The notes below the pieces were generated by a model, which saw nothing but the letters and a program-made list of their open reading frames with translations, was not told the DNA's origin and did not search any database. Of a stretch of DNA of 50,968 bases, positions 4,810-34,698 are shown piece after piece. The DNA is from a virus, in IMG/VR virus record IMGVR_UViG_3300020711_000014, positions 1-50,968 of that record; one strand, given 5' to 3'. Both the position numbers and the translations under genes were made by a program. The first letter of the stretch is position 1. The number at the start of each line of letters is the position of its first letter.

Positions 4810-4844
4810 TGGTATGATGGGCAATATATTTTTGGGAATAATCT

Positions 4845-6260: not shown

Positions 6261-6262
6261 TC

Positions 6263-7063: not shown

Positions 7064-7074
7064 GGTTTTAACCT

Positions 7075-9421: not shown

Positions 9422-9431
9422 GGAATAAGCC

Positions 9432-10091
9432 ATGACCGCACAAATTTCTCTACAACCAATGGTAACAACCAACGCTGCTGGCTTATTTAATGTCAACTCC
9501 GCTGGTTTTACACAAGGTGATGCACTCGACGATCCAGCAGTTAAATTCTGGTTGGCTGGTGGTGTTCTTTCAACTTCTGCTACTTCTCCTTTATGGGGCG
9601 GAGTTCCAATTGCTGAATTGATCCCAACTGCACAATCTGGTGTTTACTCTGGTGACACACAACCCGGTACTGACACATTAGGTTCTACCATTATCCAAGC
9701 ATCTACTGTAGCTGCTCCGACTGGTATTTCCGTGTTTAACCAAGCTTTCCAAGGTATCACAACCCCACAAAGCACAGCACCGTTGTACTCTCCCGGCATG
9801 TCTGTAAACTTCTACCGTTTCGGTTCAGGCGCTCGTATTCCATTGCCTTGCGATGCTTCTATCGTAGCTTTGGCTGGCAGCTCTATCACTGAAACTGTGT
9901 ATTGGGATACAACAAACCTCCGTTTAACAACAACAGCAACGAGCAACTTTGCAGTACCTTGCAAAATCTTGCGTATTAGCACTTCTGGTAACAAAATTGT
10001 TAACTACAATTCTGGTACTGGCAATGCTAACTGGTCTAACACCATCGTTGGTGGCTCATCTGCTGCTCCTGTAGCAGTTGTTCTAATCTAA
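9432..10091 (+). CDS. Probable head decoration / structural protein
   Basis: 219 aa, rich in Ser, Thr, Ala and Gly with beta-strand alternation and no charged coiled coil. RBS AAGGA. Placed between scaffold and major capsid genes, where decoration (cement) proteins lie in DUF2184-type phages. No catalytic motif. High expression is suggested by good ribosome sites and codon choice like that of the capsid gene next to it. Confidence 0.65.
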   Translation: MTAQISLQPMVTTNAAGLFNVNSAGFTQGDALDDPAVKFWLAGGVLSTSATSPLWGGVPIAELIPTAQSGVYSGDTQPGTDTLGSTIIQASTVAAPTGISVFNQAFQGITTPQSTAPLYSPGMSVNFYRFGSGARIPLPCDASIVALAGSSITETVYWDTTNLRLTTTATSNFAVPCKILRISTSGNKIVNYNSGTGNANWSNTIVGGSSAAPVAVVLI

Positions 10092-10105
10092 GAAAGGAAT
10101 AGATC

Positions 10106-11131
10106 ATGTCAGGTTTTGCACCTTCATATGTAACAGTAAATCCACACTTCATGATGCCTGAGCTGATTATGCAGTACAGCTTGGCTTCTGGTGCGTTTAC
10201 AACTCTGGCAACAGAGAACCCAATGCCACGCTTAGGCGAGGCTGACCTTTATGTTTACGCTAAAAAGGTTCAGTTGACGACTCAAGTATCTGCTAACCAA
10301 TCGACTGCTAACCAGTTGCCAAGCGCATCTGTTATCCCTTCGATGATTAGTACTGCTACTTATCGTCTGCAAACCCGCGCTCAGTACGACAACTTCGATG
10401 AAGCTGCTACTGGTGCTTGGGGCTATGCACTCCCAGAGGCTCTCCGTCTTGCTGCTCGTCAAGGTATCGCCCAGCAGTTGCGTAACGCTCTTCTCTATGG
10501 CTACAACCCAGCCAACGGCGAAGGCTTGCTCAATACTTCTGGCGCTACTCGCATCAACTTAGGTGCAGACAGCAACGGTAACGTAGGCTACAGCACATGG
10601 GATTCTGGTCAATTAGCTCAGTTCTTGCTAAATGCAATCGGTAACTTAAAAACTACTACATTGCAAATTGGTCAACCTTTGCGCTTGGTATTCCTTGCTC
10701 CACAGCGTTTCATTCAACAGATCAGCTACGGCGGCATCGTGTCATTGACACAATTCCAACGTATCGGCGCTGGTGTTGAAACTGCTGCTGGCTTGGTTGA
10801 AACCGTAGCTCAGTGGGCAGGTGGTGACGATGTATCTTTTGCTGCTGATGACACACTCATCGGTCAAGGTTACGGCGGTACTGACGCAATCATCTTGATT
10901 GCTCCAGAACTCAAGATTCCTAAAGCAAACTCACGCATCAACACCAACGTATTTGCTGAATTGACACCAAATACAACTGCAACATCTTTGATGCTCTGCG
11001 ACGTGGCTGCACCTACAGAGATTCCTACTCCATTGCCAGACGGTGGTATTACTACCCTCTACACAATGCGTAGCACCTCTGGTTGGGGTATCCGTCCAGA
11101 AGGCATGACGATTATTTCGGCTGCCTATTAA
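10106..11131 (+). CDS. Major capsid protein, DUF2184 type
   Basis: 341 aa. Family-like segments: MMPELIMQYSLASGAF near the N-terminus, TRAQYDNFDEAATGAWGYAL (about 92-111), LLYGYNPANGEGLLN (about 130-144), and a C-terminus ending TSGWGIRPEGMTIISAAY. The start carries AGAAAGGAAT as RBS. It is followed at once by a strong terminator, as expected for the most abundant virion protein. The fold should be HK97-like; a processed N-terminal delta domain is not obvious. Confidence 0.88.
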   Translation: MSGFAPSYVTVNPHFMMPELIMQYSLASGAFTTLATENPMPRLGEADLYVYAKKVQLTTQVSANQSTANQLPSASVIPSMISTATYRLQTRAQYDNFDEAATGAWGYALPEALRLAARQGIAQQLRNALLYGYNPANGEGLLNTSGATRINLGADSNGNVGYSTWDSGQLAQFLLNAIGNLKTTTLQIGQPLRLVFLAPQRFIQQISYGGIVSLTQFQRIGAGVETAAGLVETVAQWAGGDDVSFAADDTLIGQGYGGTDAIILIAPELKIPKANSRINTNVFAELTPNTTATSLMLCDVAAPTEIPTPLPDGGITTLYTMRSTSGWGIRPEGMTIISAAY

Positions 11132-11151
11132 TAAAATCTCGTGAGGATTTT

Positions 11152-11175
11152 AACCACCCTTCGGGGTGGTTTTTT
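11152..11175 (+). terminator. Rho-independent terminator after major capsid gene
   Basis: AACCACCC-TTCG-GGGTGGTT followed by a T run. An 8-bp perfect stem with a UUCG tetraloop. Confidence 0.9.
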
Positions 11176-11195
11176 GTTAATATATGAGAACCCAA

Positions 11196-11261
11196 GTGAT
11201 GCTGGGAAACATTCTTTATGGGGAGCCGGGGGTTCAAAAGACCCCGCATCATCGGCTTCCC
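11196..11261 (+). ncRNA. Structured intergenic RNA with competing helices
   Basis: Several complementary segments: GGGGAGCCG (11220-11228) with CGGCTTCCC (11253-11261); inside it GGGGT/ACCCC (11229-11233/11241-11245); GTGATGC (11196-11202) with GCATCAT (11246-11252); and TGGGAA (11203-11208) with TTCCCA (11257-11262). The second and third helices would form pseudoknots with, or compete against, the first. There is no U tract. It is probably a leader element controlling the next gene. No Rfam identity is known to me. Confidence 0.5.
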
Positions 11262-11281
11262 ACCCATACTAGGGGAAAATA

Positions 11282-11788
11282 ATGGATTTATTTATCGCAA
11301 ATTGCAGTAAACAGGACTTTTTGTTCACATATATGTTGCCTGAGAACATTAGACCTTTTTCACACAAAATCCGTGCTGGAGCACAAATTAAGCTAGTTCA
11401 AGATCAACTTCAAGTCGATGCGATCATTAAACAGCATGAGTTGTATGGAATGATGGAAGTCACTAAAGTTAAAAAAGGCTTTGGTGGACTATGCTATCGT
11501 TTTAATAAACCAATTAATGTTGAAGCAATTGAAGCCGGTATTAGTCAATCTGACCAAGAAAATATTGACCGCGCTCAAGAAGCCCGTAGTATCACTGCCG
11601 CAGCGCAAGATCAAATCATTTCAATGAAAGCACAAGAAATGGGAATCAAACAAAAGGGCGGTATTGAGTTTGAAATTACGGAAGATAAAAAGAACGCAGC
11701 CGATCAATCCGAAAAGTTTGACCAAAAAATTGAAGTGATTCATGAAGGTGAAGCACCAAAAGGACGTGGTAGACCAAGAAAAGGATAA
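11282..11788 (+). CDS. Hypothetical protein with C-terminal AT-hook-like motif
   Basis: 168 aa. N-terminus MDLFIANCSKQDFLFTYMLP. The middle contains helical segments (ENIDRAQEARSITAAAQDQI) and the last residues are KGRGRPRKG, matching the minor-groove AT-hook core GRP flanked by basic residues. It is bracketed by terminators at 11152 and 11794, so it has its own transcription unit, led by the structured RNA element. It lies between capsid and connector genes. It may be a head-associated DNA-binding protein, but the function is unknown. Confidence 0.7.
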   Translation: MDLFIANCSKQDFLFTYMLPENIRPFSHKIRAGAQIKLVQDQLQVDAIIKQHELYGMMEVTKVKKGFGGLCYRFNKPINVEAIEAGISQSDQENIDRAQEARSITAAAQDQIISMKAQEMGIKQKGGIEFEITEDKKNAADQSEKFDQKIEVIHEGEAPKGRGRPRKG

Positions 11789-11793
11789 TAAAT

Positions 11794-11814
11794 AGCCCCC
11801 TTGCGGGGCTTTTT
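11794..11814 (+). terminator. Rho-independent terminator
   Basis: AGCCCC-CTTGC-GGGGCT followed by TTTT, 6 nt after the stop of the AT-hook protein. Confidence 0.88.
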
Positions 11815-11850
11815 CATTTAGAATATAGAAAATCTTTCTAGGATGGTTCT

Positions 11851-12309
11851 ATGGCTGATCCAATTGTTTCGCCACCCTCGTTAAACGGCTTTATTGCGTG
11901 GGCGCAAGCCGTTATGGGTATTCCCACTCAGGCTATGTCACCAACCGACCCCGGCTGGAATTACGCTTATGTATTGGCTTTGGATATTGTTCCAACCGAT
12001 TTTGCGGCAACTGTACCTGATATTTATACGCTGACAGTTTATAACTGGGCAGGAAGTCAGCTTTTACAGTTTCAACAAGATTACGCTGGACAAAGCTATT
12101 TCACTACATTACGCGCTCAATTTGGCATTAACAACTTTATTGCCGGTGTAGTCACATCTGCGGGCGACGTAAGCACGAATGAAGCGCTTGCCGTAGGTCA
12201 TGGCTTGCGTGATCTTAGCTTATTGGATTTGCAACGCATTAAAGACCCATACGGGCGCGTAGCGCTGTCATACATGCAACAACTTGGCACACTCTGGGGC
12301 TTAACCTAA
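11851..12309 (+). CDS. Head-tail connector protein (putative)
   Basis: 152 aa. MADPIVSPPSLNGFIAWAQA start after CTAGGATGG. Mainly helical with aromatic-rich segments (SQLLQFQQDYAGQSYFTTLR). It is the first gene after the capsid block and is directly coupled to the next gene (TAATG), where adaptor proteins that bind the portal are encoded. It resembles DUF4054-type adaptors in position and size; no motif decides this. Confidence 0.6.
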   Translation: MADPIVSPPSLNGFIAWAQAVMGIPTQAMSPTDPGWNYAYVLALDIVPTDFAATVPDIYTLTVYNWAGSQLLQFQQDYAGQSYFTTLRAQFGINNFIAGVVTSAGDVSTNEALAVGHGLRDLSLLDLQRIKDPYGRVALSYMQQLGTLWGLT

Positions 12310-12779
12310 TGAAGCTACATTTAGGCGTTGTAGAAGTACCTGAAATTGAAGGTACTACCTATACCGTAGGACAAGACCTTGAAAAAAGATACGGTCTATT
12401 TTCAATGTTTTATAACGCCCATCAACAAGAGATTGCCGATTTAATCGCTAAAGACGCCGCAATAGGTTTAGAAATGGCAGAAAAAAACATGCCAATTTCT
12501 GTAAAATCTGTTTTTGCAGTTAGCGGGGAAACAATTACCGATAAAATGCACAACTTTTTGACTAGTCAAGAAATCGAACGCGTGGCGGGAAAATACGGCG
12601 AAGAAGGTATTCCAACCAAAGCCGCATTAGAAGGCATTAACACTCGCACTGCAACCGGAAAAGCTCCTAAAAGAATACGAAAAGGTCAAAAATTTAAAAA
12701 GGTGGTTACAGGTGTTCGCCGCCCATCTTTTATTGATACCGGTATTTTTGAGCGATCTTTAAAAGGATGGATTGAATAA
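12309..12779 (+). CDS. Neck / tail completion protein (putative)
   Basis: 156 aa. MKLHLGVVEVPEIEGTTYTV start, overlapping both neighbours by 1 nt (TAATG). The C-terminal half is basic (RIRKGQKFKKVVTGVRRPSF) and ends in a short strand, FIDTGIFERSLKGWI, like tail-completion proteins of the HK97 gp10 group, which often end near TGxLxxSI. Function inferred from position between connector and sheath genes. Confidence 0.55.
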   Translation: MKLHLGVVEVPEIEGTTYTVGQDLEKRYGLFSMFYNAHQQEIADLIAKDAAIGLEMAEKNMPISVKSVFAVSGETITDKMHNFLTSQEIERVAGKYGEEGIPTKAALEGINTRTATGKAPKRIRKGQKFKKVVTGVRRPSFIDTGIFERSLKGWIE

Positions 12780-16702: not shown

Positions 16703-18280
16703 ATGGCTGTTAAATCCGTTATAGAAATTGATGTCAATGACGAAAAATTTAAAGCGTTTCAGGCTGCCTTTGATAGATATCAAAAAACATTAGATTTACA
16801 GCAAAAAAGATGGTCTGAAGTAAATAAAACTTTTGACCAACTTAACAAAAAGCAAAAAGATTTTAATAAGTTAGTTAAAGATAACGCTAAAAATTTAAAA
16901 GATGCCGTATCTACTACCAGCAATATAGCTCGTAATATGGCGTCTGCTGCGCTTTCGGCGGCTAAATGGGTAGCTTATGGTGCTTTAGGTGGTGGGTTTG
17001 GTCTTGGTGCATTAGCTTCTTCTGCTTCTGACTATCGTCGCCAAGCTTTAGGTTTAGGCGTTTCTACAGGTCAATTACGGGCAGCTAACGTAGCCTATGG
17101 ACGAGCTTTTGACGCTCAATCCGTAATGAACAGTATTGCTAATATGCAATATGACCCTATAGGACAAGCTACGTTAGCCCGTTTAGGCGTTGCTAGAGGT
17201 GCAAATCCCGCTGAAAATTTGGGAGAAACTTTTAAAAACGCTGTAGCATTATTTGAAAAATTTGGCAAAAACCCTGTATTTGCCAAAAATTTAGGTTTAA
17301 CAGATATATTTAGTTTGGAAGAGTTACGCCGCGGATCAAATATGACTGCCAAAGAATTAGATGAAATGGCAGAACAGTTTGAAAAAGATAAAAAGATTTT
17401 TGAGTTAGATGATCGCGTTAGTAAAGCATGGCAAGATTTTTGGTATACGTTAAAGAAAAACGTCAATGTTTTAGAAGTTGGTTTTTTAAAATCGCTTAAA
17501 GATTTAGTACCTCAATTAAGTGAGCTTTCAGAAACTATTGCCAATGCTATTGTCAATCTATTGGCAAGTAAAGAATTTCAACAAGCCGTTAAAGATTTTG
17601 CAGATCAAATTTCTTCAGGAGAATTTCAAGAAAAAGTAAGTAAATTTTTTACTGCATTAGGGCAATTAGCTGACGGCATGATAACTATCATGCGAAAACT
17701 AGGGATATTACCTGCTGATGAAGCGGCAGAAATGGCAAAAGCAAAAGCTTATCAAAAAAGTTTAGCTCAAAAACAATACGATGAAATGACCCCCGCGCAA
17801 CGAAAATTGTTGGGATTACATGACCCTTCACTTTCTCCAGCCGAAGTAAATTTTAATCCGGGAAATATACGTTATATTGGGCAAAGCAACGCTGCTAAAG
17901 GGTATATGGGCTTTGCAAAATATAACTCTTGGCAAGAAGGTTTTAGCGCTCTTAATAAACAGTTATCATTGTACGAAACAGGGCAGTCAGCAGCGGCAGG
18001 AAACAGAAAATTACAAACTATTGCAGATATTATTTCTACTTATGCTCCTTCAAGTGAAAATAATGTTGAAGAATATATTAAATATGTCGCAAAACAATCA
18101 GGATTTGGGGCAACAGAACAACTAAATATTAATGATCCAAATACAAACTATAAGTTAATGTCGGCAATTGCTAATTATGAAATCGGTAAAGGAACTTCAT
18201 TTACACCACAAGGTGTACAAGTTATCATTAACAATAACACCGGTAACAATGCGATTGCTACCGCCGCAGCATTAAAATAA
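16703..18280 (+). CDS. Tape measure protein with C-terminal muramidase domain
   Basis: 525 aa. N-terminal coiled coil rich in Lys/Gln (about 1-75), then a hydrophobic glycine-rich segment SAAKWVAYGALGGGFGLG (about 88-105), more helices, and a C-terminal domain from about residue 375. That domain has FNPGNIRYIGQ, a DGWEGF-like SWQEGFSAL, YETGQSA, and YAPSSENNVEEYIKYVAKQSG, the pattern of the small phage muramidases related to PRD1 P5. It would set tail length and open peptidoglycan during DNA entry. At about 0.15 nm per residue it predicts a short tail of roughly 80 nm. Confidence 0.82.
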   Translation: MAVKSVIEIDVNDEKFKAFQAAFDRYQKTLDLQQKRWSEVNKTFDQLNKKQKDFNKLVKDNAKNLKDAVSTTSNIARNMASAALSAAKWVAYGALGGGFGLGALASSASDYRRQALGLGVSTGQLRAANVAYGRAFDAQSVMNSIANMQYDPIGQATLARLGVARGANPAENLGETFKNAVALFEKFGKNPVFAKNLGLTDIFSLEELRRGSNMTAKELDEMAEQFEKDKKIFELDDRVSKAWQDFWYTLKKNVNVLEVGFLKSLKDLVPQLSELSETIANAIVNLLASKEFQQAVKDFADQISSGEFQEKVSKFFTALGQLADGMITIMRKLGILPADEAAEMAKAKAYQKSLAQKQYDEMTPAQRKLLGLHDPSLSPAEVNFNPGNIRYIGQSNAAKGYMGFAKYNSWQEGFSALNKQLSLYETGQSAAAGNRKLQTIADIISTYAPSSENNVEEYIKYVAKQSGFGATEQLNINDPNTNYKLMSAIANYEIGKGTSFTPQGVQVIINNNTGNNAIATAAALK

Positions 18281-18288
18281 AGGTTTTT

Positions 18289-18939
18289 ATGAGCGCATCT
18301 TTAGGACAAACACTTTTTGAAAATGCGTATCAAAATACGCCTATTATTTTTCAAGGTGGAATTGCTAGCAGTTTGCCGGGACAAATACTACCAATCATTG
18401 CAATCACCGAACTTTTAGATATTGCAGGTTTACCTAGCGGGCAATTATTTGCTCAATATCGTCCTTTACCGGGCGGTACTTTAACTGAATGGCAAGTCGC
18501 TGAATACCCTTTTGCTAGTTTTCAAACGGCGGCAAATGCGGTAGTTCAACAACCATTAAAAATTAGTATGCAAATGATTTGCCCCGCGCAAAATGGCGGC
18601 GGCTATGTTTTAAAAATAGCTATTTTAAGTGCTTTAAAAGCAGTCATAGATCAACACATGTTAACAGGAGGAAGTTTTACGGTTGTTACGCCCGCGTATA
18701 CTTATACAAACTGTTTATTAACCTCAATACGAGATATTTCAAGTTCTTCTGAAAAACAAGTTCAATACATGTTTCAGTGGGATTTTGTGCAACCTTTAAT
18801 AACAGCTTCTGGCGCGCAATCTGCTTTAGGAACGCTTTACAAACGCTTTCAAGATCAAGTACCTAATACTTATCCACTTACATTTCAAGCTACCCCGCCA
18901 GTTAATTACAGCTATGATTCGATAACTCCAACTGTGTAA
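18289..18939 (+). CDS. Baseplate / tail-tip protein (216 aa)
   Basis: Directly follows the tape measure with an AAAGG site. Alpha/beta composition with a central QQPLKISMQMICPAQ strand region and a C-terminal SEKQVQYMFQWDFVQPL. Position corresponds to tail-tip or hub adaptor proteins (LysM-like or gp53-like) in contractile phages. No motif is recognised beyond context. Confidence 0.6.
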   Translation: MSASLGQTLFENAYQNTPIIFQGGIASSLPGQILPIIAITELLDIAGLPSGQLFAQYRPLPGGTLTEWQVAEYPFASFQTAANAVVQQPLKISMQMICPAQNGGGYVLKIAILSALKAVIDQHMLTGGSFTVVTPAYTYTNCLLTSIRDISSSSEKQVQYMFQWDFVQPLITASGAQSALGTLYKRFQDQVPNTYPLTFQATPPVNYSYDSITPTV

Positions 18940-24490: not shown

Positions 24491-24784
24491 ATGACAACTC
24501 AAAACTATTTAGTAGTTGAAAGCAATGTTGTAACCAATATTTGTGTTTGGGATGGCGATACAAATACATGGACACCCCCAGCAAATTCAACAATGCTAAT
24601 TCAAGCCGATACACCAACTAAAGTATGGACTTACGATAAAGCATCAAATTCTTATGTTCTTACAGAACAATTAGGTGGTGGGGATATTGGATTTACTTGG
24701 GATGGTTCTGTATTAACAACTAATGAGCCACAGCCTGCACCTCCAAAAGCACAACCAATAGCTAGTGGAACTACAACTGCATAA
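24491..24784 (+). CDS. Hypothetical tail-associated protein (97 aa)
   Basis: N-terminal strands NYLVVESNVVTNICVWDGDT and Trp-rich NTWTPP, then a linker and a Pro-rich C-terminus (EPQPAPPKAQP). Placed between adhesin-like and cupin genes; overlaps the cupin start through TAATG. Similar short proteins accompany fibres in many phages. Possibly a fibre chaperone; function unknown. Confidence 0.6.
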   Translation: MTTQNYLVVESNVVTNICVWDGDTNTWTPPANSTMLIQADTPTKVWTYDKASNSYVLTEQLGGGDIGFTWDGSVLTTNEPQPAPPKAQPIASGTTTA

Positions 24785-25065
24785 TGGTTACTCATATAGG
24801 AACTGCCCATAGCTTTACTTATGATGGAGCACAATTAAATATTTACCATGCAAATAAAGGTGAGGGTTTGCCAAAGCATGAACATATTTATAGTCATGCA
24901 ACTATGTGTAATGCTGGTTCTTGTTTGGTTAGTCTTGAAGGTCGTAGCTACACAATCAACAAAAATAGCCAACCTTTAAATCTTCCTGCTGGACAATGGC
25001 ATGAAATTGAAGCATTAGAAGATGGCACAGTATTTGTAAATGTATTTGCTGAAGGTAAGTACTAA
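24784..25065 (+). CDS. Cupin-fold protein
   Basis: 93 aa, one cupin domain: GEGLPKHEHIYSHATMC (cupin motif 1 with H-x-H and a further His), beta turn, then LNLPAGQWHEIEALEDGTVF (motif 2 with His). These residues could bind a metal. Coupled to the gene before by TAATG. In a fibre cluster, a cupin might modify sugars or act as a structural or assembly factor; no substrate is evident. Confidence 0.75.
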   Translation: MVTHIGTAHSFTYDGAQLNIYHANKGEGLPKHEHIYSHATMCNAGSCLVSLEGRSYTINKNSQPLNLPAGQWHEIEALEDGTVFVNVFAEGKY

Positions 25066-25133: not shown

Positions 25134-26303
25134 ATGACTGTTCAGCTTTTTGCCAATAATGCGAAAACAACGCTGGCATCACCGATTAACGCTACCCAGA
25201 CTACCATTACAGTAGCTCCGGGGACAGGAGTGCTTTTTCCTTCTCCAAGCTCTGGTCAAGGTTTTAAAGTTACTTTAGTTAGCGCAACTTCCGCTTCTGT
25301 ATACGAAATTTGCCTTTGTACTGCTAGATCAGGCGACACTTTAACAGTAGTTAGAGCCCAAGAAGGCACTTCTGGAACACCTTTTCTTTTAAACGATATT
25401 GTTGGCAACTATGACACAGCAGATGTCATGGCTAATTTGGTTCAAGTTTTACAGCTACAAAACCAATATTATTTATATGCTGTAGCTAGCGGATCAGCCA
25501 ATGCTTTAGCGGCGACAATCCCTTCACCTTTGACATCTATTCCAGATGGAATGTCTATTGTTGTCAAAGCTACTGCTGCGAATACTGGCGCAACCACTTT
25601 AAATTTAACCCTTGGAAGCACTTCAACAGGTGCTCAAGCTATTGTTACAGGAAATAATACTGCTTTAGTTGGTGGTGAAATTCCCGGTTCTGGCTATCCT
25701 ATAACTCTTTCTTATAGCTCTACTTTTGGTGCTTGGGTTATTACTGACGGTAATATTAATTTAAGCCTTTATGCTTATATTAACAGCCCAACATTTACAG
25801 GTACTCCAAGAGTTCCAACAGCGGCATTTAACGATAACAGCACTATTATTGCCAGTACCTCTTGGGTTCAAAATCAATTGGCTAACTATGCGCCAATTTA
25901 TAACCCCACATTTACTGGTACTCCTGCCGCTCCGACTGCTCCATCTGGAACTAGCACAACTCAAATAGCTACTACTGCTTTTGTGCAAAATCAAATTGCT
26001 ACTCAAGTTAAAGGTTTAGGATTTGGTGGCACTACTTGGCATGATGTTACTGGAAGTAGAGCGGCAAATACCACTTATACAAATTCATACTCTTACCCAA
26101 TTATGGTAAATGTGAATTTAATTACTGGTTCTTCTGGAATTACAAATCCTTCTTATTTTTATGTTAACGGAATTGCGGTTGCAGATGCTAATAGCGGCGG
26201 TTGGACAGGAGCAACAAGTTTTACCGTTTCAGTAATAGTTCCACCGGGTAGTACATATTCAACAAATTCAAATGGTATTGCTATTTGGGCAGAACTTTAT
26301 TAA
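25134..26303 (+). CDS. Tail fibre protein 1
   Basis: 389 aa. The N-terminal domain (about 1-105) starts MTVQLFANNAKTTLASPINA and has the TARSGDTLTVVRAQEGTSG segment, also present in the large fibre at 26608, so both probably use the same baseplate anchor. The middle has two SPTFTGTPxxP repeats with SGTSTTQIATTAFVQNQIA, a common fibre-shaft module. The C-terminal about 100 residues form a beta domain that may be the receptor-binding tip. AAGGAAAAG RBS. Confidence 0.78.
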   Translation: MTVQLFANNAKTTLASPINATQTTITVAPGTGVLFPSPSSGQGFKVTLVSATSASVYEICLCTARSGDTLTVVRAQEGTSGTPFLLNDIVGNYDTADVMANLVQVLQLQNQYYLYAVASGSANALAATIPSPLTSIPDGMSIVVKATAANTGATTLNLTLGSTSTGAQAIVTGNNTALVGGEIPGSGYPITLSYSSTFGAWVITDGNINLSLYAYINSPTFTGTPRVPTAAFNDNSTIIASTSWVQNQLANYAPIYNPTFTGTPAAPTAPSGTSTTQIATTAFVQNQIATQVKGLGFGGTTWHDVTGSRAANTTYTNSYSYPIMVNVNLITGSSGITNPSYFYVNGIAVADANSGGWTGATSFTVSVIVPPGSTYSTNSNGIAIWAELY

Positions 26304-26312
26304 GGAAAAATT

Positions 26313-26585
26313 ATGACTTATAACTATGGTAGCCCCATTACAGGCACTCTTACTGGAACAACAGCTACTGTAGGCGTTCCAGCTTTAGTTTACCCAGCAA
26401 CTATTGTGTTGAACTCCACAGCAGGTGGCAGAGCAATTCAATTTTCTTTGGATAACGGTACAACTTTTTATACCGCAGTAACTCCTACAGGAACAGAAAC
26501 AAGTCAAATTTATTATGTTCTGACTTTCCCTGTGACTACACTTAAATTTACTGGCGCAGCAAACGACACTTATTCAATTCTTTAA
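26313..26585 (+). CDS. Small fibre-associated beta protein (90 aa)
   Basis: Starts MTYNYGSPITGTLTGTTATV. Almost all strands, with FSLDNGTTFYTAVTPTGTE. Lies between the two fibre genes that share an anchor. Could be a tip subunit or accessory to fibre 1. No family is recognised. Confidence 0.6.
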   Translation: MTYNYGSPITGTLTGTTATVGVPALVYPATIVLNSTAGGRAIQFSLDNGTTFYTAVTPTGTETSQIYYVLTFPVTTLKFTGAANDTYSIL

Positions 26586-26607: not shown

Positions 26608-29600
26608 ATGACAATACTATTATTTGCAAACCAAGCGCAGACCACTCTTGCGTTACCAGTAGCCCCTTCTGATACTACTATCTATGTAGCTAGTGGTACT
26701 GGTAATTATTTTCCCAACCCACAGGCTGGGCAAGGTTTTAAATTAACATTAGTTAATTCAACAAATTCATTAATAGATGAAATTGTTTTGGTAACAGCCC
26801 GTTCTGGCGATGTCATGACTGTTGTTCGTGGTCAAGAAGGAACAATTCCTCAAGCTTGGAAGTTTGGAGATTTTGCAGTTAACTTAGATACTGCTGGTTC
26901 TTCTGATGCTTTTGTTCAGTTCGATCAAATTGAAAATGGTTCTATTAATGCGTACTTTAATAGTATGCGAACCACTACAGGACAAGTGGATTCTGTTCCT
27001 GTAAACCCAACAGATTTAGTAAATAAAGCATATGCCGATTATTTAATTCAAGGCATGACACCAAAAAAAGAATCTCAATGTGCCACAACGACAATTGCAC
27101 AAGGTGGTGGAAATATTGCTTTATCTGGTTTGCCCATTATTGATGGTTATCAAACTGTTGCAGGAGATCGGGTTTTAGTTAAAAACCAAGACAGCCCTGC
27201 TCAAAATGGTATTTATGTAGCTAGTGCTGGAGCATGGCTCAGAGCTACAGATATGGATGTTTGGTCAGAAGTTCCAAGTGCTTTTACTTTTGTTCAAAAC
27301 GGTACATACAATGTCAATACAGGTTGGGTAGCTATTGCTCCAGTAAACGGAACAATTAATGTAACTCCAATTAATTGGACACAGTTTTCTGGGTATGGAA
27401 TTTCAGGTTACTCTGGTTATTCAGGTTATTCTGGCTATTCTGGCTTTAGTGGTAGCTCTGGCTATTCTGGATCAGGTACATCAGGCTATTCAGGCATAAG
27501 CGGATTTAGCGGTTACTCTGGCTGGTCAGGAATCTCAGGATACAGCGGTCAATCAGGTTTTAGCGGCACTTCTGGTTATTCTGGATCAGGTGTATCAGGA
27601 TTCTCTGGCTATAGTGGCTACAGCGGATTTAGTGGCATTTCTGGCTATTCTGGAATTAGTGGCTATTCTGGCATTAGTGGATATAGCGGCATATCAGGCT
27701 ATTCTGGTATTTCGGGATACAGCGGATCTGGCATTAGCGGATATAGCGGTTCTGGTATTTCAGGATATTCAGGAACATCAGGCTGGTCTGGCATCTCTGG
27801 CTGGTCAGGCTATTCAGGCATTAGCGGTGCATCAGGCACTTCAGGTTGGTCTGGTTATAGTGGTTATTCAGGCACATCAGGTTGGTCAGGTATTTCTGGT
27901 TGGTCAGGCTACTCTGGCACATCGGGTTGGTCAGGAATTTCTGGCTATTCTGGATATTCTGGAACTTCTGGTTTTAGCGGTTATTCAGGAATTTCTGGGT
28001 ATAGCGGAATTTCTGGTTACTCAGGCATTTCTGGCTATTCAGGAGTATCAGGTTTATCAGGATATTCAGGATCAGGTATTAGTGGGTATAGCGGATTTTC
28101 TGGTTTTAGTGGCGCACAAGGTACATCCATTAATATCAAAGGAACTGTTGCAACTCCAGCAGATTTACCAGCAACAGGCAATCAAGTTAATGATGCCTAT
28201 ATTGTTACTTCCAATGGCGATCTCTATGTATGGAATGGCACAGCTTGGTTTAACGCTGGTCAAATTGTAGGTACATCGGGCTATTCAGGTTACTCTGGAA
28301 CATCAGGATTTTCTGGTATTTCTGGCTACTCTGGCACAAGTGGATTTAGCGGTATCTCTGGTTATAGTGGCACAAGTGGCTATAGCGGATTCTCAGGTAT
28401 TTCTGGTTATTCAGGCTCTGGTGTAAGTGGATATAGCGGTTGGTCTGGTATATCAGGCTGGTCTGGCTATTCGGGCTATAGTGGCACTTCTGGCTACTCT
28501 GGTACATCAGGCTGGTCTGGTTACTCAGGAACTTCAGGATGGTCTGGTATTAGCGGATATAGCGGTTATTCTGGCACTTCAGGATGGTCTGGTATTAGCG
28601 GTTTTTCTGGTTACTCTGGCATCAGCGGAACTAATGGCGCTTCTGGATTTTCAGGAATTAGTGGTTACAGCGGTTACTCTGGAAGCGGTGTATCGGGGTA
28701 TTCTGGATTTTCTGGTTATTCTGGAAGCGGTGTATCTGGTTATAGTGGATATAGCGGAAGCGGTGTAAGTGGCTATAGCGGATATTCAGGATATTCTGGT
28801 TCTGGTGTAAGCGGTTATAGCGGATATTCTGGTTTGGGATATTATGGATTAACCGCAACAGGATCAAATTCATTAAGCCTTGGTAGCAAATCTTTTACTA
28901 CCAATTTAGATGCTTCTACTACAGCTTTTTCTGTTGGGCAATATGTCAGAGTATTTTCTACATCTGTGCCATCTCAATTTATGGAAGGCTTAATAACCGC
29001 ATTTACAGGAACTTCACTAACAGTCAATATGACTTATGTAAATGGGGTAGCATCTTTTAGCAATTGGACAATTACTGATTCTGGTGCTGTTGGAACTTCT
29101 GGCTATTCTGGCTATTCTGGTATTAGCGGGGCAAATGGCGCTTCTGGATTAAGTGGCTATTCAGGATTCAGCGGCATATCTGGGTACTCTGGATTCTCAG
29201 GAATTAGCGGATATTCTGGATCAGGTGTAAGCGGCTATTCTGGATACAGCGGAACAAATGGAACTAATGGCGCATCTGGATTAAGTGGTTACTCAGGATT
29301 TAGTGGCATATCCGGATATTCTGGTACAAACGGTTCTACCGGTATAAGCGGTTATAGCGGTTACAGCGGGGTTAACGGATCAACTGGAACTTCTGGTTAT
29401 TCAGGCTATTCAGGTTTAAATGGTGCAACAGGAACATCTGGTTATAGCGGTTATTCAGGAGCTACTGGAGCAACTGGCACTTCTGGTTACTCTGGTCAAA
29501 ACGGTGCAACAGGTACTTCTGGCTATTCTGGTTATTCAGGACAAAATGGCGCAACTGGAACATCGGGATACAGCGGATATTCTGGACAAAATGGATCTAC

Positions 29601-30126
29601 AGGAACATCAGGCTACAGCGGATATTCTGGAGCTACAGGTTCTGCTGGAACTTCTGGATACTCAGGTTATAGTGGTGTAGCCCCATCAACAGTTACTACT
29701 ACCAGCACTTCTTCTGGTTCAACATTCTATTTAGATTTTGTAGCTGCCAATGGCGGTTCAGGACAAACTTTATATAACAACGGATCTTTAACTTATGTTC
29801 CTTCAACAGGAACATTAACAGCTACATCTGTTGCTGGCTCATCAGATGAAAGATTAAAGAAAGATTGGGAAGATCTACCTGAAAACTTTATTGAGTTGCT
29901 TGCACAAGTGAAACATGGGGTATTTACCCGTATCTCTAGCGGCAATAAAGAACCCGGTGTATCTGCTCAATCTATGCTAAATGCTTTAGCTCAAGCAGTT
30001 ATTGAAGGCGAAGATGGTATGCTGGCAGTTAATTATGGCGGAGCAGCATTAGTTTCTGTTATAGAATTAGCAAACTTGGTTCTCAAACTTAAACAAGATA
30101 TTGAGGAATTGAAAAACAAACCATAA
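26608..30126 (+). CDS. Giant collagen-like tail fibre with S74 chaperone end
   Basis: 1,172 aa. Residues 1-105 are an anchor domain like that of fibre 1. Residues about 110-260 contain phage fibre segments including SMRTTTGQVDSVPVNPTDL. Then come three blocks of Gly-X-Ser triplets (X mostly Tyr, Ile, Phe, Trp, Thr), separated by two small beta domains (about 505-555 and 745-825). The third block mixes in GAT, GQN and GST triplets. The last about 94 residues, from SSDERLKKDWEDL (S1079, D1080, K1084), are a peptidase S74 intramolecular chaperone that normally trimerises and cleaves itself off. This suggests a trimeric, triple-helical shaft without proline. The glycosyltransferase operon follows after only a few bases. 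Confidence 0.88.
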   Translation: MTILLFANQAQTTLALPVAPSDTTIYVASGTGNYFPNPQAGQGFKLTLVNSTNSLIDEIVLVTARSGDVMTVVRGQEGTIPQAWKFGDFAVNLDTAGSSDAFVQFDQIENGSINAYFNSMRTTTGQVDSVPVNPTDLVNKAYADYLIQGMTPKKESQCATTTIAQGGGNIALSGLPIIDGYQTVAGDRVLVKNQDSPAQNGIYVASAGAWLRATDMDVWSEVPSAFTFVQNGTYNVNTGWVAIAPVNGTINVTPINWTQFSGYGISGYSGYSGYSGYSGFSGSSGYSGSGTSGYSGISGFSGYSGWSGISGYSGQSGFSGTSGYSGSGVSGFSGYSGYSGFSGISGYSGISGYSGISGYSGISGYSGISGYSGSGISGYSGSGISGYSGTSGWSGISGWSGYSGISGASGTSGWSGYSGYSGTSGWSGISGWSGYSGTSGWSGISGYSGYSGTSGFSGYSGISGYSGISGYSGISGYSGVSGLSGYSGSGISGYSGFSGFSGAQGTSINIKGTVATPADLPATGNQVNDAYIVTSNGDLYVWNGTAWFNAGQIVGTSGYSGYSGTSGFSGISGYSGTSGFSGISGYSGTSGYSGFSGISGYSGSGVSGYSGWSGISGWSGYSGYSGTSGYSGTSGWSGYSGTSGWSGISGYSGYSGTSGWSGISGFSGYSGISGTNGASGFSGISGYSGYSGSGVSGYSGFSGYSGSGVSGYSGYSGSGVSGYSGYSGYSGSGVSGYSGYSGLGYYGLTATGSNSLSLGSKSFTTNLDASTTAFSVGQYVRVFSTSVPSQFMEGLITAFTGTSLTVNMTYVNGVASFSNWTITDSGAVGTSGYSGYSGISGANGASGLSGYSGFSGISGYSGFSGISGYSGSGVSGYSGYSGTNGTNGASGLSGYSGFSGISGYSGTNGSTGISGYSGYSGVNGSTGTSGYSGYSGLNGATGTSGYSGYSGATGATGTSGYSGQNGATGTSGYSGYSGQNGATGTSGYSGYSGQNGSTGTSGYSGYSGATGSAGTSGYSGYSGVAPSTVTTTSTSSGSTFYLDFVAANGGSGQTLYNNGSLTYVPSTGTLTATSVAGSSDERLKKDWEDLPENFIELLAQVKHGVFTRISSGNKEPGVSAQSMLNALAQAVIEGEDGMLAVNYGGAALVSVIELANLVLKLKQDIEELKNKP
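27391..29685 (+). repeat. Three blocks of 9-nt repeats encoding Gly-X-Ser triplets
   Basis: Blocks at about 27391-28119, 28273-28833 and 29092-29685, together roughly 200 triplets. Codons vary synonymously (TCT, TCA, AGC, AGT for Ser), so the protein pattern, not the DNA, is conserved. The blocks are likely to vary in length by slippage or recombination. Confidence 0.9.
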
Positions 30127-30135
30127 GGATTAGTG

Positions 30136-31377
30136 ATGCAATCCCCAAAGTATTCGGTAGTGATACCGACTTACAATAATTGTGAGAAATATCTAAAACC
30201 GTGTATTGATTCCATAATTAAATACACCGAAATGACCGACATAGAGTTGGTCATTTCTGCTAATGGCTGTACCGATAACACTGCAAAATATCTAGAATAT
30301 TTAGCAACAGCGATTCCTAACTTATATGTCGTTTGGAATGACGAACCTTTAGGTTTTGCCAAAGCTATTAATCAAGGCATAGTAAATACTATTGGGCATA
30401 AAATAGTGTTTTTAAATAACGACACTTTGCTGTTAGAACAACCAAAAAATGATTGGTTAAAACGACTAGATATTGGCGACATTGCGTCGGTTCTAACGCT
30501 AAACTCTCCTATTACAAATCAATCGTTTGCGGTTTTCTTTTGTACCATGATTGATCGCCAAGTATTTGATGATATTGGCGTACTAGATGAATCATTTAAA
30601 ACAGGTGGCTGTGAAGATATAGACTTTTGCAAACGAGCTACAGATGCGGGCTTTAGGCTAATAGATGTGGGCTATCGGGGTGATTTTCCAATATATCACG
30701 CTGCTGAAGGCACTGTTCACGATACTAGTCTTGTACAAGATTGGAGCCAAAAATTCCATGCCAACGAGCTGCGTTTAGCCAAAAAATGGAATACGGATCA
30801 TTACCGCTATTTGCTATCCAATAATTACGAACGAGCTGTATTTCTAAAGGGCGATCCTGTATTTCCCCGAGAAACTACACGCTATGAATGGGCGGCAAAA
30901 AATCTTGATGACAGAACAAACGTCGTAGAAATTGGCTGTTCTACCGGTTACGGAAGTCAATTTTTCCCGAACTACTATGACTATGTTGGTATTGATTACG
31001 ACCCCATTATTGTGCAAGTAGCTAAAGAACAAGATTGGGGTTTTACAAGGGCTTTTACCCACGCTGACATTAATAATTGTGACTTAGGAACGGCAGCCAC
31101 TATTGTTGCTTTTGAAGTCATTGAGCATTTAGATAATGGTTTAGAGATTGTTGAAATGCTAAAAACAAAATGCCATCGGTTATTAATTTCGGTGCCGTGG
31201 AATGAGCCTAAAGGCTTTTGGGGTGAACATCACAAATTGCATGGCTTAAACGAAAGCCACTTCCCCGGCTTTATGTTTTGGTACATTAACCACGCCGGAG
31301 TTTTATCTGCGGAGCCGCAAGCAATTACCCCTGAAAATCCTAGTAATTTAATGCTTTGCAGGTGGGATCATGAGTAA
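30136..31377 (+). CDS. Glycosyltransferase family 2 fused to methyltransferase
   Basis: Start at the ATG giving MQSPKYSVVIPTYNNCEKY with AAGGA 6 nt upstream; a GTG one codon earlier is less likely. N-terminal GT-A fold: VVIPTYNN (8-15), IELVISANGCTDNTA, FLNNDTLLL (DxD-like), and GGCEDIDFCKRA. From about residue 255 a class I SAM methyltransferase: VVEIGCSTGYGS (263-274), YVGIDYDP, VAFEVIEHLDNG. The enzyme could transfer a sugar and cap or methylate the glycan. It begins 9 nt after the giant fibre gene and overlaps the next GT by 8 nt. Confidence 0.85.
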   Translation: MQSPKYSVVIPTYNNCEKYLKPCIDSIIKYTEMTDIELVISANGCTDNTAKYLEYLATAIPNLYVVWNDEPLGFAKAINQGIVNTIGHKIVFLNNDTLLLEQPKNDWLKRLDIGDIASVLTLNSPITNQSFAVFFCTMIDRQVFDDIGVLDESFKTGGCEDIDFCKRATDAGFRLIDVGYRGDFPIYHAAEGTVHDTSLVQDWSQKFHANELRLAKKWNTDHYRYLLSNNYERAVFLKGDPVFPRETTRYEWAAKNLDDRTNVVEIGCSTGYGSQFFPNYYDYVGIDYDPIIVQVAKEQDWGFTRAFTHADINNCDLGTAATIVAFEVIEHLDNGLEIVEMLKTKCHRLLISVPWNEPKGFWGEHHKLHGLNESHFPGFMFWYINHAGVLSAEPQAITPENPSNLMLCRWDHE

Positions 31378-32341
31378 AGTTCTTTGCTCAATAGCTACCA
31401 GAGGTAGATACCAGTCCACCCTGCCGCTTGTTTTACAGGCGGTTATTAATCAAACTTGGCTACCTAATAAGGTAGTTATTTTTGATGACAACGATGAACC
31501 TCAAGACATGCGGCAAGAGTTCATCTATCAGCATTTATTTAAACAGATGCAAATCAAAGGTATTGAATGGGAGTGGCTGTTTGCCGAAAAGAAAGGGCAG
31601 CACCATATCCATCAAAAAGCCAACTTGATGGGCTATGAGTGGGTATGGCGCGTCGATGACGATTGCGTTCCAGAACCAACTGTTCTTCAAAGCCTGTATA
31701 GCCATGCATCCCAAATAGACAATGTGGGGGCAGTAGGTGGTGCCATCATTACAGGACAGCCTATTAACGCAGTTAATTCCACCGGATTAATTAAAAATAT
31801 TAATTTAGAACCTAATATTCAATGGGACTTTATTAAAGGTATCCGCGAGGTAGAGCATCTGCATTGCTCTTTCTTGTACCGCGCTGGAGTGCATGATTTT
31901 AATACCGGGTTATCCCGTGTAGCGCACCGTGAAGAAACGCTGTTTACTTATGGGTTATATCAAAAAGGTTATAAAATTTTAGCTGTTCCCTATGCTACAT
32001 CTTGGCATATGAAGAACCCCCAAGGCGGCATTCGGGCTGAAACTAACGGAGAAATGTATCACCATGACGAACAAATTTTCAGAAACCACCTTAGCTATAG
32101 TGGGCGTACTATTGTGGTACTTAATGGTGGTCTTGGGGATCACATTGTGTTCAGTCGTATATTGCCTGAAATTCATAACCCAATTGTTTTTGGCTGCTAT
32201 CCTGAAATTATTGAAAGCGATTCCATAGCTAAAGCGCAACAGCTTTTTGGCAGCTTAGATCAATGGAATATCTACGCCAAGATGGATCAGTGGAAGTGGA
32301 CTGATAGCTTAGAAAATGCTTATAGAAAGCTCTATCTATGA
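31370..32341 (+). CDS. GT2 glycosyltransferase with start of a GT-B domain
   Basis: 323 aa. N-terminal GT-A domain: LCSIATRGRYQSTLPLVLQA, VVIFDDNDEP, and the metal-binding WRVDDDC (93-99), ending near YHHDEQIFRNHL. The last about 75 residues begin a different fold, IVVLNGGLGDHIVFSRILPE (from about 248), which is how GT9-type (heptosyltransferase-like) GT-B enzymes start. The rest of that fold appears in the next gene, read from an ATGA overlap. Confidence 0.82.
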   Translation: MSKVLCSIATRGRYQSTLPLVLQAVINQTWLPNKVVIFDDNDEPQDMRQEFIYQHLFKQMQIKGIEWEWLFAEKKGQHHIHQKANLMGYEWVWRVDDDCVPEPTVLQSLYSHASQIDNVGAVGGAIITGQPINAVNSTGLIKNINLEPNIQWDFIKGIREVEHLHCSFLYRAGVHDFNTGLSRVAHREETLFTYGLYQKGYKILAVPYATSWHMKNPQGGIRAETNGEMYHHDEQIFRNHLSYSGRTIVVLNGGLGDHIVFSRILPEIHNPIVFGCYPEIIESDSIAKAQQLFGSLDQWNIYAKMDQWKWTDSLENAYRKLYL

Positions 32342-32772
32342 TTTTAATACACCCTTTTGCCAAACCTTTAGTAAAAGGTAGGGAAAACCCTAAAAACTAT
32401 CCATATTGGGAAGAACTTGTATACGAATTGCAAAAAACTATGCACGTCGTTCAAATTGGGCTAGAGGGCGAACGTCAATTAGTTCCTGATTTTCGCAAAG
32501 GGTTATCCATGCCCCAATTGCGTCAGCTCATTAAAGAGTGCAAAACGTGGATTGGTATTGACAGTTTTTTTCAGCACTTGGCTTGGAGTGAGGGCAAACC
32601 GGGCATTGTGCTTTGGTCAGTTTCTGACCCAAACATTTTTGGGCATCCGGAAAACATTAATTTACTAAAAGACCGTAAATATTTGGCGTCAAATCAATTC
32701 CTTTGGTGGGACTTTACAGAGCATAATCCAGACGCTTTTGTAAAACCGCAAGAAGTGTTAAACTTTCTGTAA
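32338..32772 (+). CDS. C-terminal half of a GT9-like GT-B glycosyltransferase
   Basis: 144 aa. MILIHPFAKPLVKGRENPKN, then VVQIGLEGERQL, LIKECKTWIGIDSFFQHLAW and GKPGIVLWSVSDPNIFGHP: the nucleotide-sugar binding half of heptosyltransferase-like enzymes. The matching N-terminal half is fused to the end of the upstream GT2. The ATGA overlap suggests both halves are made together and assemble. Activity of a split enzyme is inference. Confidence 0.8.
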   Translation: MILIHPFAKPLVKGRENPKNYPYWEELVYELQKTMHVVQIGLEGERQLVPDFRKGLSMPQLRQLIKECKTWIGIDSFFQHLAWSEGKPGIVLWSVSDPNIFGHPENINLLKDRKYLASNQFLWWDFTEHNPDAFVKPQEVLNFL

Positions 32773-33858: not shown

Positions 33859-34252
33859 CGCATATATCTATGCCGGTTTAGTTTTAATAGCTTTAGCTGG
33901 TGTAGGCTATGGCAGACATGAACATACTGTGTTTGAAGAGTACAAAGCTGAAGAAATTGCTAATGCACGGCTAAAAGAACATCAACTTCAAGATGCCACC
34001 GATCAAATAAGGAAAGACAAAGATGCTCAAATCAACGCTATTAATGACCAGCTTGCTACTGTTCTTGTGCAGTTGCGCTCCCGAACCAGTAGGAACGATA
34101 AAGTATCCAACAATGGACAAGGTGGAACTGGGATGTCCCTTTTTGCCGAGGATGCAGCTTTTCTTGACGGGGAATCTGCCCGTGCCGACAAATTGCGGTC
34201 AGCCCTTGACGCCTGTTATAAACAGTACGACGAAGTAACTGGGAATAAATAA
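33839..34252 (+). CDS. Rz: Rz-like inner-membrane spanin
   Basis: 137 aa. N-terminal signal anchor (ISAYIYAGLVLIALAGVG), then a periplasmic coiled coil (EEYKAEEIANARLKEHQL, RKDKDAQINAINDQLA) and C-terminal ALDACYKQYDEV. Overlaps lysozyme through TAATG. It works with the nested Rz1 to fuse inner and outer membranes, showing a Gram-negative host. Confidence 0.85.
   Translation: MFPLPISAYIYAGLVLIALAGVGYGRHEHTVFEEYKAEEIANARLKEHQLQDATDQIRKDKDAQINAINDQLATVLVQLRSRTSRNDKVSNNGQGGTGMSLFAEDAAFLDGESARADKLRSALDACYKQYDEVTGNK
34023..34238 (+). CDS. Rz1: Rz1-like outer-membrane lipoprotein, nested in Rz
   Basis: 71 aa in the +1 frame wholly inside Rz. Signal peptide MLKSTLLMTSLLLFLCSC with a lipobox ending LCSC, then a Pro-rich mature part. 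Embedded Rz1 is the classical spanin arrangement. Cys at about position 18 would be lipidated. Confidence 0.8.
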   Translation: MLKSTLLMTSLLLFLCSCAPEPVGTIKYPTMDKVELGCPFLPRMQLFLTGNLPVPTNCGQPLTPVINSTTK

Positions 34253-34698
34253 TGGAGTACTCTAAAGATGGTTTACACCTTACTGAGCAGTTTGAAGGAG
34301 TACGGCTTACTGCTTATCCAGACCCCGGGACTGGTGGAGATCCTTGGACTATTGGTTACGGTCATACTGGGGCTGATATACACGCGGGATTGACCATCAC
34401 TCAGGCGCAAGCCGAAGAGTATTTGCGTCAAGACGTGCAAAAAGCAGCCGCCAATGTAAACACCCATGTCAAAGTTGAAATCACTCAAGACGAGTTTGAT
34501 GCACTTGTGGACTTTGCATTTAACTGCGGATGCGGCAACTTGGACACTTCTACGCTATTAAAGAAACTTAATGCTGGCGATCACGAAGGTGCCGCGCAAG
34601 AGTTTCTTAAATGGGATATGGCTGGCGGACACCATATGGCGGGTTTGCTGCGCCGCCGTCAAGCAGAAGCAGCATTATTTTTGACTAAACTAGCATGA
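34252..34698 (+). CDS. Endolysin, GH24 lysozyme
   Basis: 148 aa. MEYSKDGLHLTEQFEGVRLT with the catalytic Glu15, then YPDPGTGGDPWTIGYGHT giving Asp24 and Thr33 of the T4-type E-D-T triad. Later VEITQDEFDALVDFAFNCG and a final LLRRRQAEAALF, all standard for the family. No signal peptide or SAR anchor, so it needs a holin for release. Confidence 0.93.
   Translation: MEYSKDGLHLTEQFEGVRLTAYPDPGTGGDPWTIGYGHTGADIHAGLTITQAQAEEYLRQDVQKAAANVNTHVKVEITQDEFDALVDFAFNCGCGNLDTSTLLKKLNAGDHEGAAQEFLKWDMAGGHHMAGLLRRRQAEAALFLTKLA

What the first reader, a model, noticed from the sequence alone, without database searches (positions are those of the whole stretch)
26608..32772. Collagen-like Gly-X-Ser fibre linked to its own glycosyltransferase operon
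Seen: a 1,172-aa fibre with about 200 Gly-X-Ser triplets (X mostly Tyr, Ile, Phe, Trp, Thr) and an S74 chaperone end. Starting 9 nt later is a coupled set of three genes holding a GT2-methyltransferase, a GT2 with a GT-B start, and a GT-B half, before lysis genes begin. Known: Ser/Thr-rich repeat adhesins and collagen-like proteins of bacteria are often glycosylated by neighbouring GTs. Inference: these enzymes decorate the Ser/Tyr of the fibre shaft, giving a stiff, protease-resistant or receptor-mimicking glycan fibre. A proline-free Gly-aromatic-Ser triple helix is unusual in itself.
Basis: partly seen in the sequence, partly recalled or inferred. Interest (0 to 1): 0.82.

Follow-up and report, generated by a model that had tools for sequence, protein, structure and literature searches.

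The report
Phage Gly-X-Ser fibre glycosylation cassette
A lake phage carries a long collagen-like tail fibre in which almost every third residue is serine, directly followed by sugar-transfer genes that track this fibre type across many otherwise unrelated phages, so the phage probably coats its own fibre with sugars, although no sugar has been measured yet.

Summary
The fibre is real: 1172 aa, 198 Gly-X-Y triplets in runs, 166 of them with Ser at Y, no proline, and an S74-like end. It is followed after 6 nt by three overlapping genes: GT2+methyltransferase, a GT2 protein, and a GT9 C-terminal half. GT to fibre: all 31 relatives of the first GT gene with at least 8 kb of upstream sequence carry a Gly-X-Ser array; the 10 of 80 without one are cut off near the gene. 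Fibre to GT: 57 of 90 records picked only for Gly-X-Ser repeats encode the second GT family, against 0 of 50 with proline-type phage collagen. Among 42 relatives sharing the window's baseplate gene, the cassette occurs only with Gly-X-Ser (11/20, the other 9 cut at a contig end) and never without it (0/22). The isolated phage P19250A has the same pairing with an unrelated fibre backbone. Best reading: the enzymes O-glycosylate the fibre. Not shown: any sugar, the acceptor residue, or stabilisation. Some complete-looking Gly-X-Ser phages lack the cassette. The 'GT-B start' has motif support only. New variant of a known kind (self-encoded collagen glycosylation).

The parts
26608..30126 (+). Collagen-like Gly-X-Ser tail fibre, 1172 aa
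   Evidence: Pfam Collagen 3e-74; PHROG tail fibre families
26608..26937 (+). N-terminal anchor domain of the fibre (residues 1-110), shared with the preceding fibre gene at 53% identity
27397..28128 (+). Gly-X-Ser array 1 (residues 264-507), with short G-S-G breaks
28129..28269 (+). Non-collagen insert (residues 508-554) between arrays 1 and 2; a similar insert lies between arrays of the P19250A fibre
28270..28806 (+). Gly-X-Ser array 2 (residues 555-733)
29083..29682 (+). Gly-X-Ser array 3 (residues 826-1025), with GAT/GTN/GQN triplets towards its end
29842..30000 (+). S74 intramolecular chaperone-like end (residues 1079-1131), sub-threshold
30133..31377 (+). GT2MT: family-2 (GT-A) glycosyltransferase fused to a class I methyltransferase; conserved NNDT, GCEDID and E-x-GCSTGYG motifs
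31370..32341 (+). GT2B: family-2 (GT-A) glycosyltransferase with invariant DDD motif and a ~77-aa Rossmann-like tail carrying G-x-GD; core of the cassette
32338..32772 (+). GT9C: C-terminal half of a family-9 (heptosyltransferase-like) enzyme; 4-nt overlap with GT2B
25134..26303 (+). Second fibre with the same N-terminal anchor, no Gly-X-Ser; conserved upstream partner in related phages
26313..26585 (+). 90-aa protein of unknown role, conserved just before the fibre in related phages

Best explanation
The three genes form a virion-fibre glycosylation cassette. During late infection the phage makes the Gly-X-Ser fibre and, from the same gene string, soluble glycosyltransferases that use the host's nucleotide sugars. 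The constant pair GT2B + GT9C builds the conserved part of a glycan on the fibre, most likely starting at Ser in the Y position of Gly-X-Ser. The variable first module (here GT2-methyltransferase) extends and methyl-caps it. On a triple helix with no proline or hydroxyproline, sugars at the Y position would stabilise the shaft and cover it with a phage-specific glycan. Shown: gene content, conserved active-site motifs, the tight link between cassette and Gly-X-Ser fibre across phages, and selection on Ser. Inferred: that the fibre is the acceptor, that Ser is the site, which sugars are used, the order of steps, and stabilisation.
For: Adjacency of 6 nt with overlapping GT genes. GT to fibre: 70/80 relatives have a Gly-X-Ser array, 31/31 when at least 8 kb upstream is held; in 59 the nearest array is upstream (half of them within about 50 nt) and in 11 just downstream. 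Fibre to GT: 57/90 against 0/50 proline-collagen records (Fisher 6e-16, records not fully independent). Same lineage: 11/20 with Gly-X-Ser, 0/22 without, including one GXT/GXQ fibre; the 9 misses end at or near the fibre. P19250A has the cassette next to a Gly-X-Ser protein with an unrelated N-terminus. Large phage contigs up to 494 kb keep the GT2B+GT9C core near Gly-X-Ser genes, several within 50 nt on either side. Active-site motifs are invariant; the models are confident GT-A folds. Ser:Thr at Y is 11422:421 over 74 fibres.
Against: No glycan has been measured. Several Gly-X-Ser phages lack the cassette and any detected GT2, so Ser-rich Y positions do not by themselves require it. Gene linkage does not identify the acceptor: a cassette that alters host LPS could travel with a fibre that binds that LPS. 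GT2B+GT9C as one GT-B enzyme is not established.
Confidence: 0.75

Rival explanations
1. The cassette modifies host LPS or surface glycan late in infection (superinfection exclusion, or freeing progeny from receptors), and it travels with the fibre because the fibre recognises that glycan.
For: GT9 enzymes are typically LPS heptosyltransferases; GTs in tail-fibre islands of aquatic phages are usually read this way (PMC7029224); weak PHROG hit to GtrB-like O-antigen conversion.
Against: The link is to the shaft repeat, not to the phage lineage: it holds across unrelated backbones and anchors (P19250A; large phages), while 0/50 other collagen-type records and 0/22 lineage mates without Gly-X-Ser have it. 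None of the three cassette genes matches a membrane flippase or GtrA-like family.
Confidence: 0.15
2. The enzymes glycosylate another virion protein or phage DNA, and the Gly-X-Ser link is a passenger effect of a shared fibre island.
For: Phage GTs are known for DNA glycosylation; one structural neighbour of GT2B is a TET-associated glycosyltransferase (rank 39).
Against: Best structural matches are protein or polysaccharide GTs. The cassette sits by the fibre, not by replication genes, and covaries with the repeat among phages that share the baseplate gene.
Confidence: 0.06
3. The Gly-X-Ser shaft is functional without sugar; linkage to GTs reflects recombination hot spots, and the cassette has little to do with the fibre.
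For: Gly-X-Ser phages without any detected GT2 (G001, G006, G031, G034).
Against: 31/31 and 0/22 are hard to obtain by chance linkage; the core pair stays intact in very divergent large phages and its motifs are invariant in the family alignment.
Confidence: 0.04

Closest known systems
BclA exosporium collagen-like glycoprotein of Bacillus anthracis/cereus
   Same: Collagen-like protein of a prokaryote that is glycosylated; sugar thought to aid hydration and stability of the shaft (PMC8968730)
   Different: Bacterial spore protein, Thr typical at Y; here a phage fibre, Ser at Y, no proline. Enzyme relationship to the BclA pathway was not tested
Mimivirus collagen glycosylation (L230, R699)
   Same: A virus encodes both a collagen and the enzymes that glycosylate it (PMC9546862; PMC8968730)
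   Different: Acts on hydroxylysine in a eukaryotic virus; here the arrays contain no lysine, the acceptor is presumed Ser, the virus is bacterial
TibC/AAH autotransporter heptosyltransferases (BAHT)
   Same: GT-B enzymes that put sugars on Ser, not Thr, of a repetitive adhesin (PMC4358343); one fused GT2B-GT9 relative matches TIGR04414 weakly (E 0.0045)
   Different: Single-chain dodecamer; here a GT9 C-half made separately and a GT2 partner; family cut-off not reached
LPS heptosyltransferases WaaC/WaaF/WaaQ (GT9)
   Same: GT9C aligns with the C-terminal domain of heptosyltransferase I (residues 180-294; E 0.016)
   Different: N-terminal domain not recognisable by profile; genomic partner is a fibre, not LPS core genes
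Annelid cuticle collagen with galactosylated threonine (Riftia)
   Same: Sugar on hydroxyl residues of the repeat helps collagen stability (PMC10141479; 'Sweet is stable' cited in PMC3368898)
   Different: Animal protein, Thr not Ser
Collagen-like tail fibres of E. coli prophages (EPcl proteins)
   Same: Trimeric phage fibres with Gly-X-Y shafts
   Different: High proline at X, shown non-glycosylated when expressed in E. coli (PMC3368898)

Membership tests
Collagen-like proteins (Gly-X-Y)n | Long runs of Gly at every third residue | tested here: met
   198 triplets in runs, longest 50; PF01391 E 3e-74
Collagen-like proteins (Gly-X-Y)n | Forms a triple helix | not testable with these tools
   needs CD or structure; no proline in the runs makes this less certain
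S74 chaperone-terminated phage fibres | Peptidase_S74 domain at the C terminus | tested here: inconclusive
   19.8 bits against cut-off 22, whole domain aligned
GT2 family, GT-A fold (GT2MT and GT2B) | Pfam GT2 over cut-off, acidic catalytic motif, GT-A fold | tested here: met
   invariant motifs; Foldseek
Class I SAM methyltransferase (GT2MT C-terminal half) | Methyltransferase profile and glycine-rich SAM motif | tested here: met
   PF13489 1.4e-7; EIGCSTGYG columns conserved
GT9 heptosyltransferases | C-terminal nucleotide-sugar-binding domain | tested here: met
   PF01075 in 52/52 members; WaaC-type chain 180-294
GT9 heptosyltransferases | N-terminal GT-B domain with catalytic Asp | tested here: inconclusive
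   invariant GxGD motif and Rossmann-like elements on GT2B; no profile match
GT9 heptosyltransferases | Uses ADP-heptose | not testable with these tools
   needs an enzyme assay
BAHT (TibC/AAH) protein O-heptosyltransferases | TIGR04414 over cut-off | tested here: not met
   16 bits against cut-off 200, in one relative only
Self-encoded protein glycosylation of a surface adhesin | GTs co-occur with their acceptor protein across lineages | tested here: met
   31/31; 57/90 vs 0/50; 11/20 vs 0/22
Self-encoded protein glycosylation of a surface adhesin | Sugar present on the acceptor | not testable with these tools
   needs mass spectrometry

The most novel reading that the evidence does not exclude
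A phage-specific, modular O-glycosylation machine for proline-free collagen: a constant GT2B+GT9C core, possibly including a GT-B enzyme assembled from two chains, starts glycans on Ser of Gly-X-Ser. Exchangeable GT2 and methyltransferase modules (from a lone methyltransferase to chains of several GT2 domains in one ~1,400-aa protein) set the glycan's length and capping. Sugars take the place of hydroxyproline in stabilising the fibre.
Probability: 0.4. Interest if true: 0.85.

Novelty: new variant of a known kind. Interest (0 to 1): 0.7.

Why it matters
If right, many freshwater phages, including very large ones, carry glycoprotein fibres made by their own enzymes. Phage GTs in tail-fibre regions are at present usually read as host LPS modifiers or DNA protectors. 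It would give a third natural way, besides hydroxyproline and charge or hydration networks, to hold a collagen triple helix together, and a compact toolkit for making O-glycosylated collagen in bacteria. A cultured phage with the pairing (P19250A) makes it directly testable.

Tried and rejected
DNA similarity of the fibre 5' part to phage records: no match. GT proteins in phage records: only P19250A is a relative of the cassette. A frame-shifted or broken gene as the cause of the GT2B/GT9C split: rejected, since the split is conserved across the family with a short overlap, though two divergent relatives carry both in one ORF (L432, L116). GT9 N-half in the GT2B tail: not confirmed by profile searches against PDB and NCBIfam. 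A bacterial origin or host paralogue: the scan of 84,980 species genomes found two loci only, both in MAG contigs, one with a Gly-X-Ser gene and so likely phage. A different glycosylation system in cassette-free Gly-X-Ser phages: 30 neighbouring proteins scanned, no GT found among them; G003 has UDP-galactopyranose mutase, an epimerase and a sulfotransferase in its neighbourhood. Literature: no paper found in the held library that describes Gly-X-Ser phage fibres or their glycosylation; absence there is weak evidence.
Full report
WHAT IS THERE. The window is a 50,968-base virus record of a phage with a contractile tail (sheath and baseplate families). ORF 26608-30126 is a 1172-aa fibre with three Gly-X-Y arrays (198 triplets in runs of four or more; 74 GYS, 29 GIS, 23 GTS, 17 GFS, 12 GWS; no proline; short G-S-G breaks), two non-collagen inserts, and a C-terminal S74-like domain just below Pfam's cut-off. 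Its N-terminal anchor is shared with the preceding fibre gene at 53% identity. Three overlapping genes follow: GT2 + methyltransferase (GT2MT), a GT2 protein (GT2B), and the C-terminal half of a GT9 enzyme (GT9C). The lysozyme gene follows at 34252-34698.

IS IT MORE THAN A DNA REPEAT. Ser at the Y position uses both codon families, TCN and AGY, which cannot interconvert by one synonymous base change. They are mixed in random order in the window (119 and 47; 70 runs, 68.4 expected). Over 74 fibres from related loci Ser is 11,422 and Thr 421 of Y positions, and Pro is rare. Ser is therefore kept at the protein level. This differs from the Thr-rich Y positions reported for many prokaryotic collagens (PMC8968730).

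ENZYMES. Across 52-56 distinct relatives the catalytic-type motifs are conserved: NNDT, GCEDID and E-x-GCSTGYG in GT2MT; DDD in GT2B; D-S-x-x-Q-H in GT9C. AlphaFold2 models are confident (pLDDT 89 and 92) and match GT-A enzymes in the PDB, among them ppGalNAc transferases (for GT2B also TarP and COLGALT1); these matches are generic for the fold. GT9C matches Glyco_transf_9 in 52 of 52 members and aligns with the C-terminal domain of heptosyltransferase I. The tail of GT2B has an invariant G-x-GD motif and Rossmann-like elements, as a GT-B N-terminal half would, but only about 77 residues and no profile support. Two divergent relatives have GT2B and GT9 in one ORF (L432, L116), which suggests that the two chains work together.

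DOES THE CASSETTE GO WITH THE FIBRE? (a) From GT to fibre. Of 80 viral loci with GT2MT relatives, 70 hold a Gly-X-Ser array. The 10 without one are cut by the contig end 0.3-4.4 kb upstream. All 31 with at least 8 kb upstream have it. In 59 the nearest array is upstream, often 10-50 nt away, and in 11 it is just downstream of the cassette. (b) From fibre to GT. Records were picked only by a DNA pattern for GYSGYSG(Y/F)SG. Of 90 distinct records, 57 hold a GT2B relative, all but two with E below 1e-77. Of 50 control records of at least 15 kb with proline-type collagen arrays, none does. (c) Same lineage. Of 42 records of at least 12 kb that share the window's baseplate gene, 20 have Gly-X-Ser and 11 of these have GT2B. 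The other nine end at or soon after the fibre, and two of those already hold part of GT2MT. None of the 22 without Gly-X-Ser has GT2B, although several are 31-73 kb long; one of the 22 has a GXT/GXQ collagen. Fisher tests give 6e-16 for (b) and 4e-5 for (c); the records are not fully independent.

ACROSS UNRELATED PHAGES. The cultured Methylophilaceae phage P19250A has MT + GT2B + GT9C (59-66% identity) after a 1201-aa protein with 225 Ser-type triplets whose N-terminus is unrelated to the window's fibre; the record calls it a tape measure and the GT genes hypothetical. In large contigs (up to 494 kb) the GT2B+GT9C core is kept, with Gly-X-Ser genes mostly within about 9 kb and several within 50 nt. 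What varies is the first module: GT2-MT, MT alone, MT fused to GT2B, GT2MT fused to GT2B, or chains of three to four GT2 domains with methyltransferases in one ~1,400-aa protein, sometimes with GT17 or FkbM domains. This pattern, a constant core with exchangeable extension modules, is what a system that starts and then elaborates a glycan would show. The family is nearly absent from cellular genomes: two loci in 84,980 species, both MAG contigs (that scan relies on short conserved peptide patterns, so distant relatives could be missed).

LIMITS. Gly-X-Ser fibres also occur without the cassette, in records of 30-60 kb with no GT2 at all (G001, G006/G027/G041, G031, G034). Either these shafts do without sugar, or other enzymes act; G003 carries UDP-galactopyranose mutase, an epimerase and a sulfotransferase in the neighbourhood of its array. 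Gene linkage cannot name the acceptor. Nothing here measures a sugar, a triple helix or a melting point.

MECHANISM AND COMPARISON. The most likely reading is self-encoded glycosylation of the fibre shaft, with Ser at Y as the probable site. Precedents for parts of this are BclA (collagen-like, glycosylated; PMC8968730), mimivirus L230/R699 (a virus that glycosylates its own collagen; PMC9546862), TibC/AAH (GT-B enzymes that modify Ser but not Thr of a repetitive adhesin; PMC4358343), and annelid collagen with galactosylated Thr (PMC10141479, and 'Sweet is stable' cited in PMC3368898). None of these combines a bacterial virus, a proline-free Gly-X-Ser shaft and this GT core. The usual reading of phage GTs near tail fibres, host O-antigen modification (PMC7029224), is the main rival; it does not readily explain why the cassette follows the shaft repeat rather than the lineage.

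Noticed in passing
L002 (KX815270.1) 5759-9364 and 9379-11409: P19250A's Gly-X-Ser protein is annotated as tail tape measure and its MT/GT2B/GT9C genes as hypothetical; both look misannotated.
   Followed up: partly
L428 4798-9036; L433 4728-9134; L423 14051-16657; L434 11144-13348: Large phages carry single proteins of 700-1,470 aa chaining GT2 domains with methyltransferase, GT17 or FkbM domains next to the cassette core, resembling glycan assembly lines.
   Followed up: partly
L405 (record G003) 4364-5269, 8017-9123, 17544-18365: A Gly-X-Ser phage record without GT2B encodes an NAD-dependent epimerase, UDP-galactopyranose mutase and a sulfotransferase around its array.
   Followed up: no
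L403 (record G001) 4537-12576: Four consecutive Gly-X-Ser genes in a 42.8-kb record with no GT2 detected.
   Followed up: partly
L413 4849-7062: A 738-aa RCC1-like beta-propeller protein lies near a 3,374-aa Gly-X-Ser protein.
   Followed up: no
L420: A contig binned as Candidatus Nitrosotalea carries the full cassette plus a Gly-X-Ser gene and is probably phage DNA in a MAG.
   Followed up: no
window 24784-25065: 93-aa cupin-like protein with weak similarity to FdtA/WxcM sugar isomerase C-terminus (E 0.002, below cut-off) among the tail genes.
   Followed up: no
window 7075-8589: 504-aa head-region protein matching PHROGs for both NUDIX hydrolase and head maturation protease, possibly a fusion.
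   Followed up: no
L402 6859-10296: A lineage mate has a Gly-X-Thr/Gln collagen fibre in place of Gly-X-Ser and lacks the cassette.
   Followed up: partly
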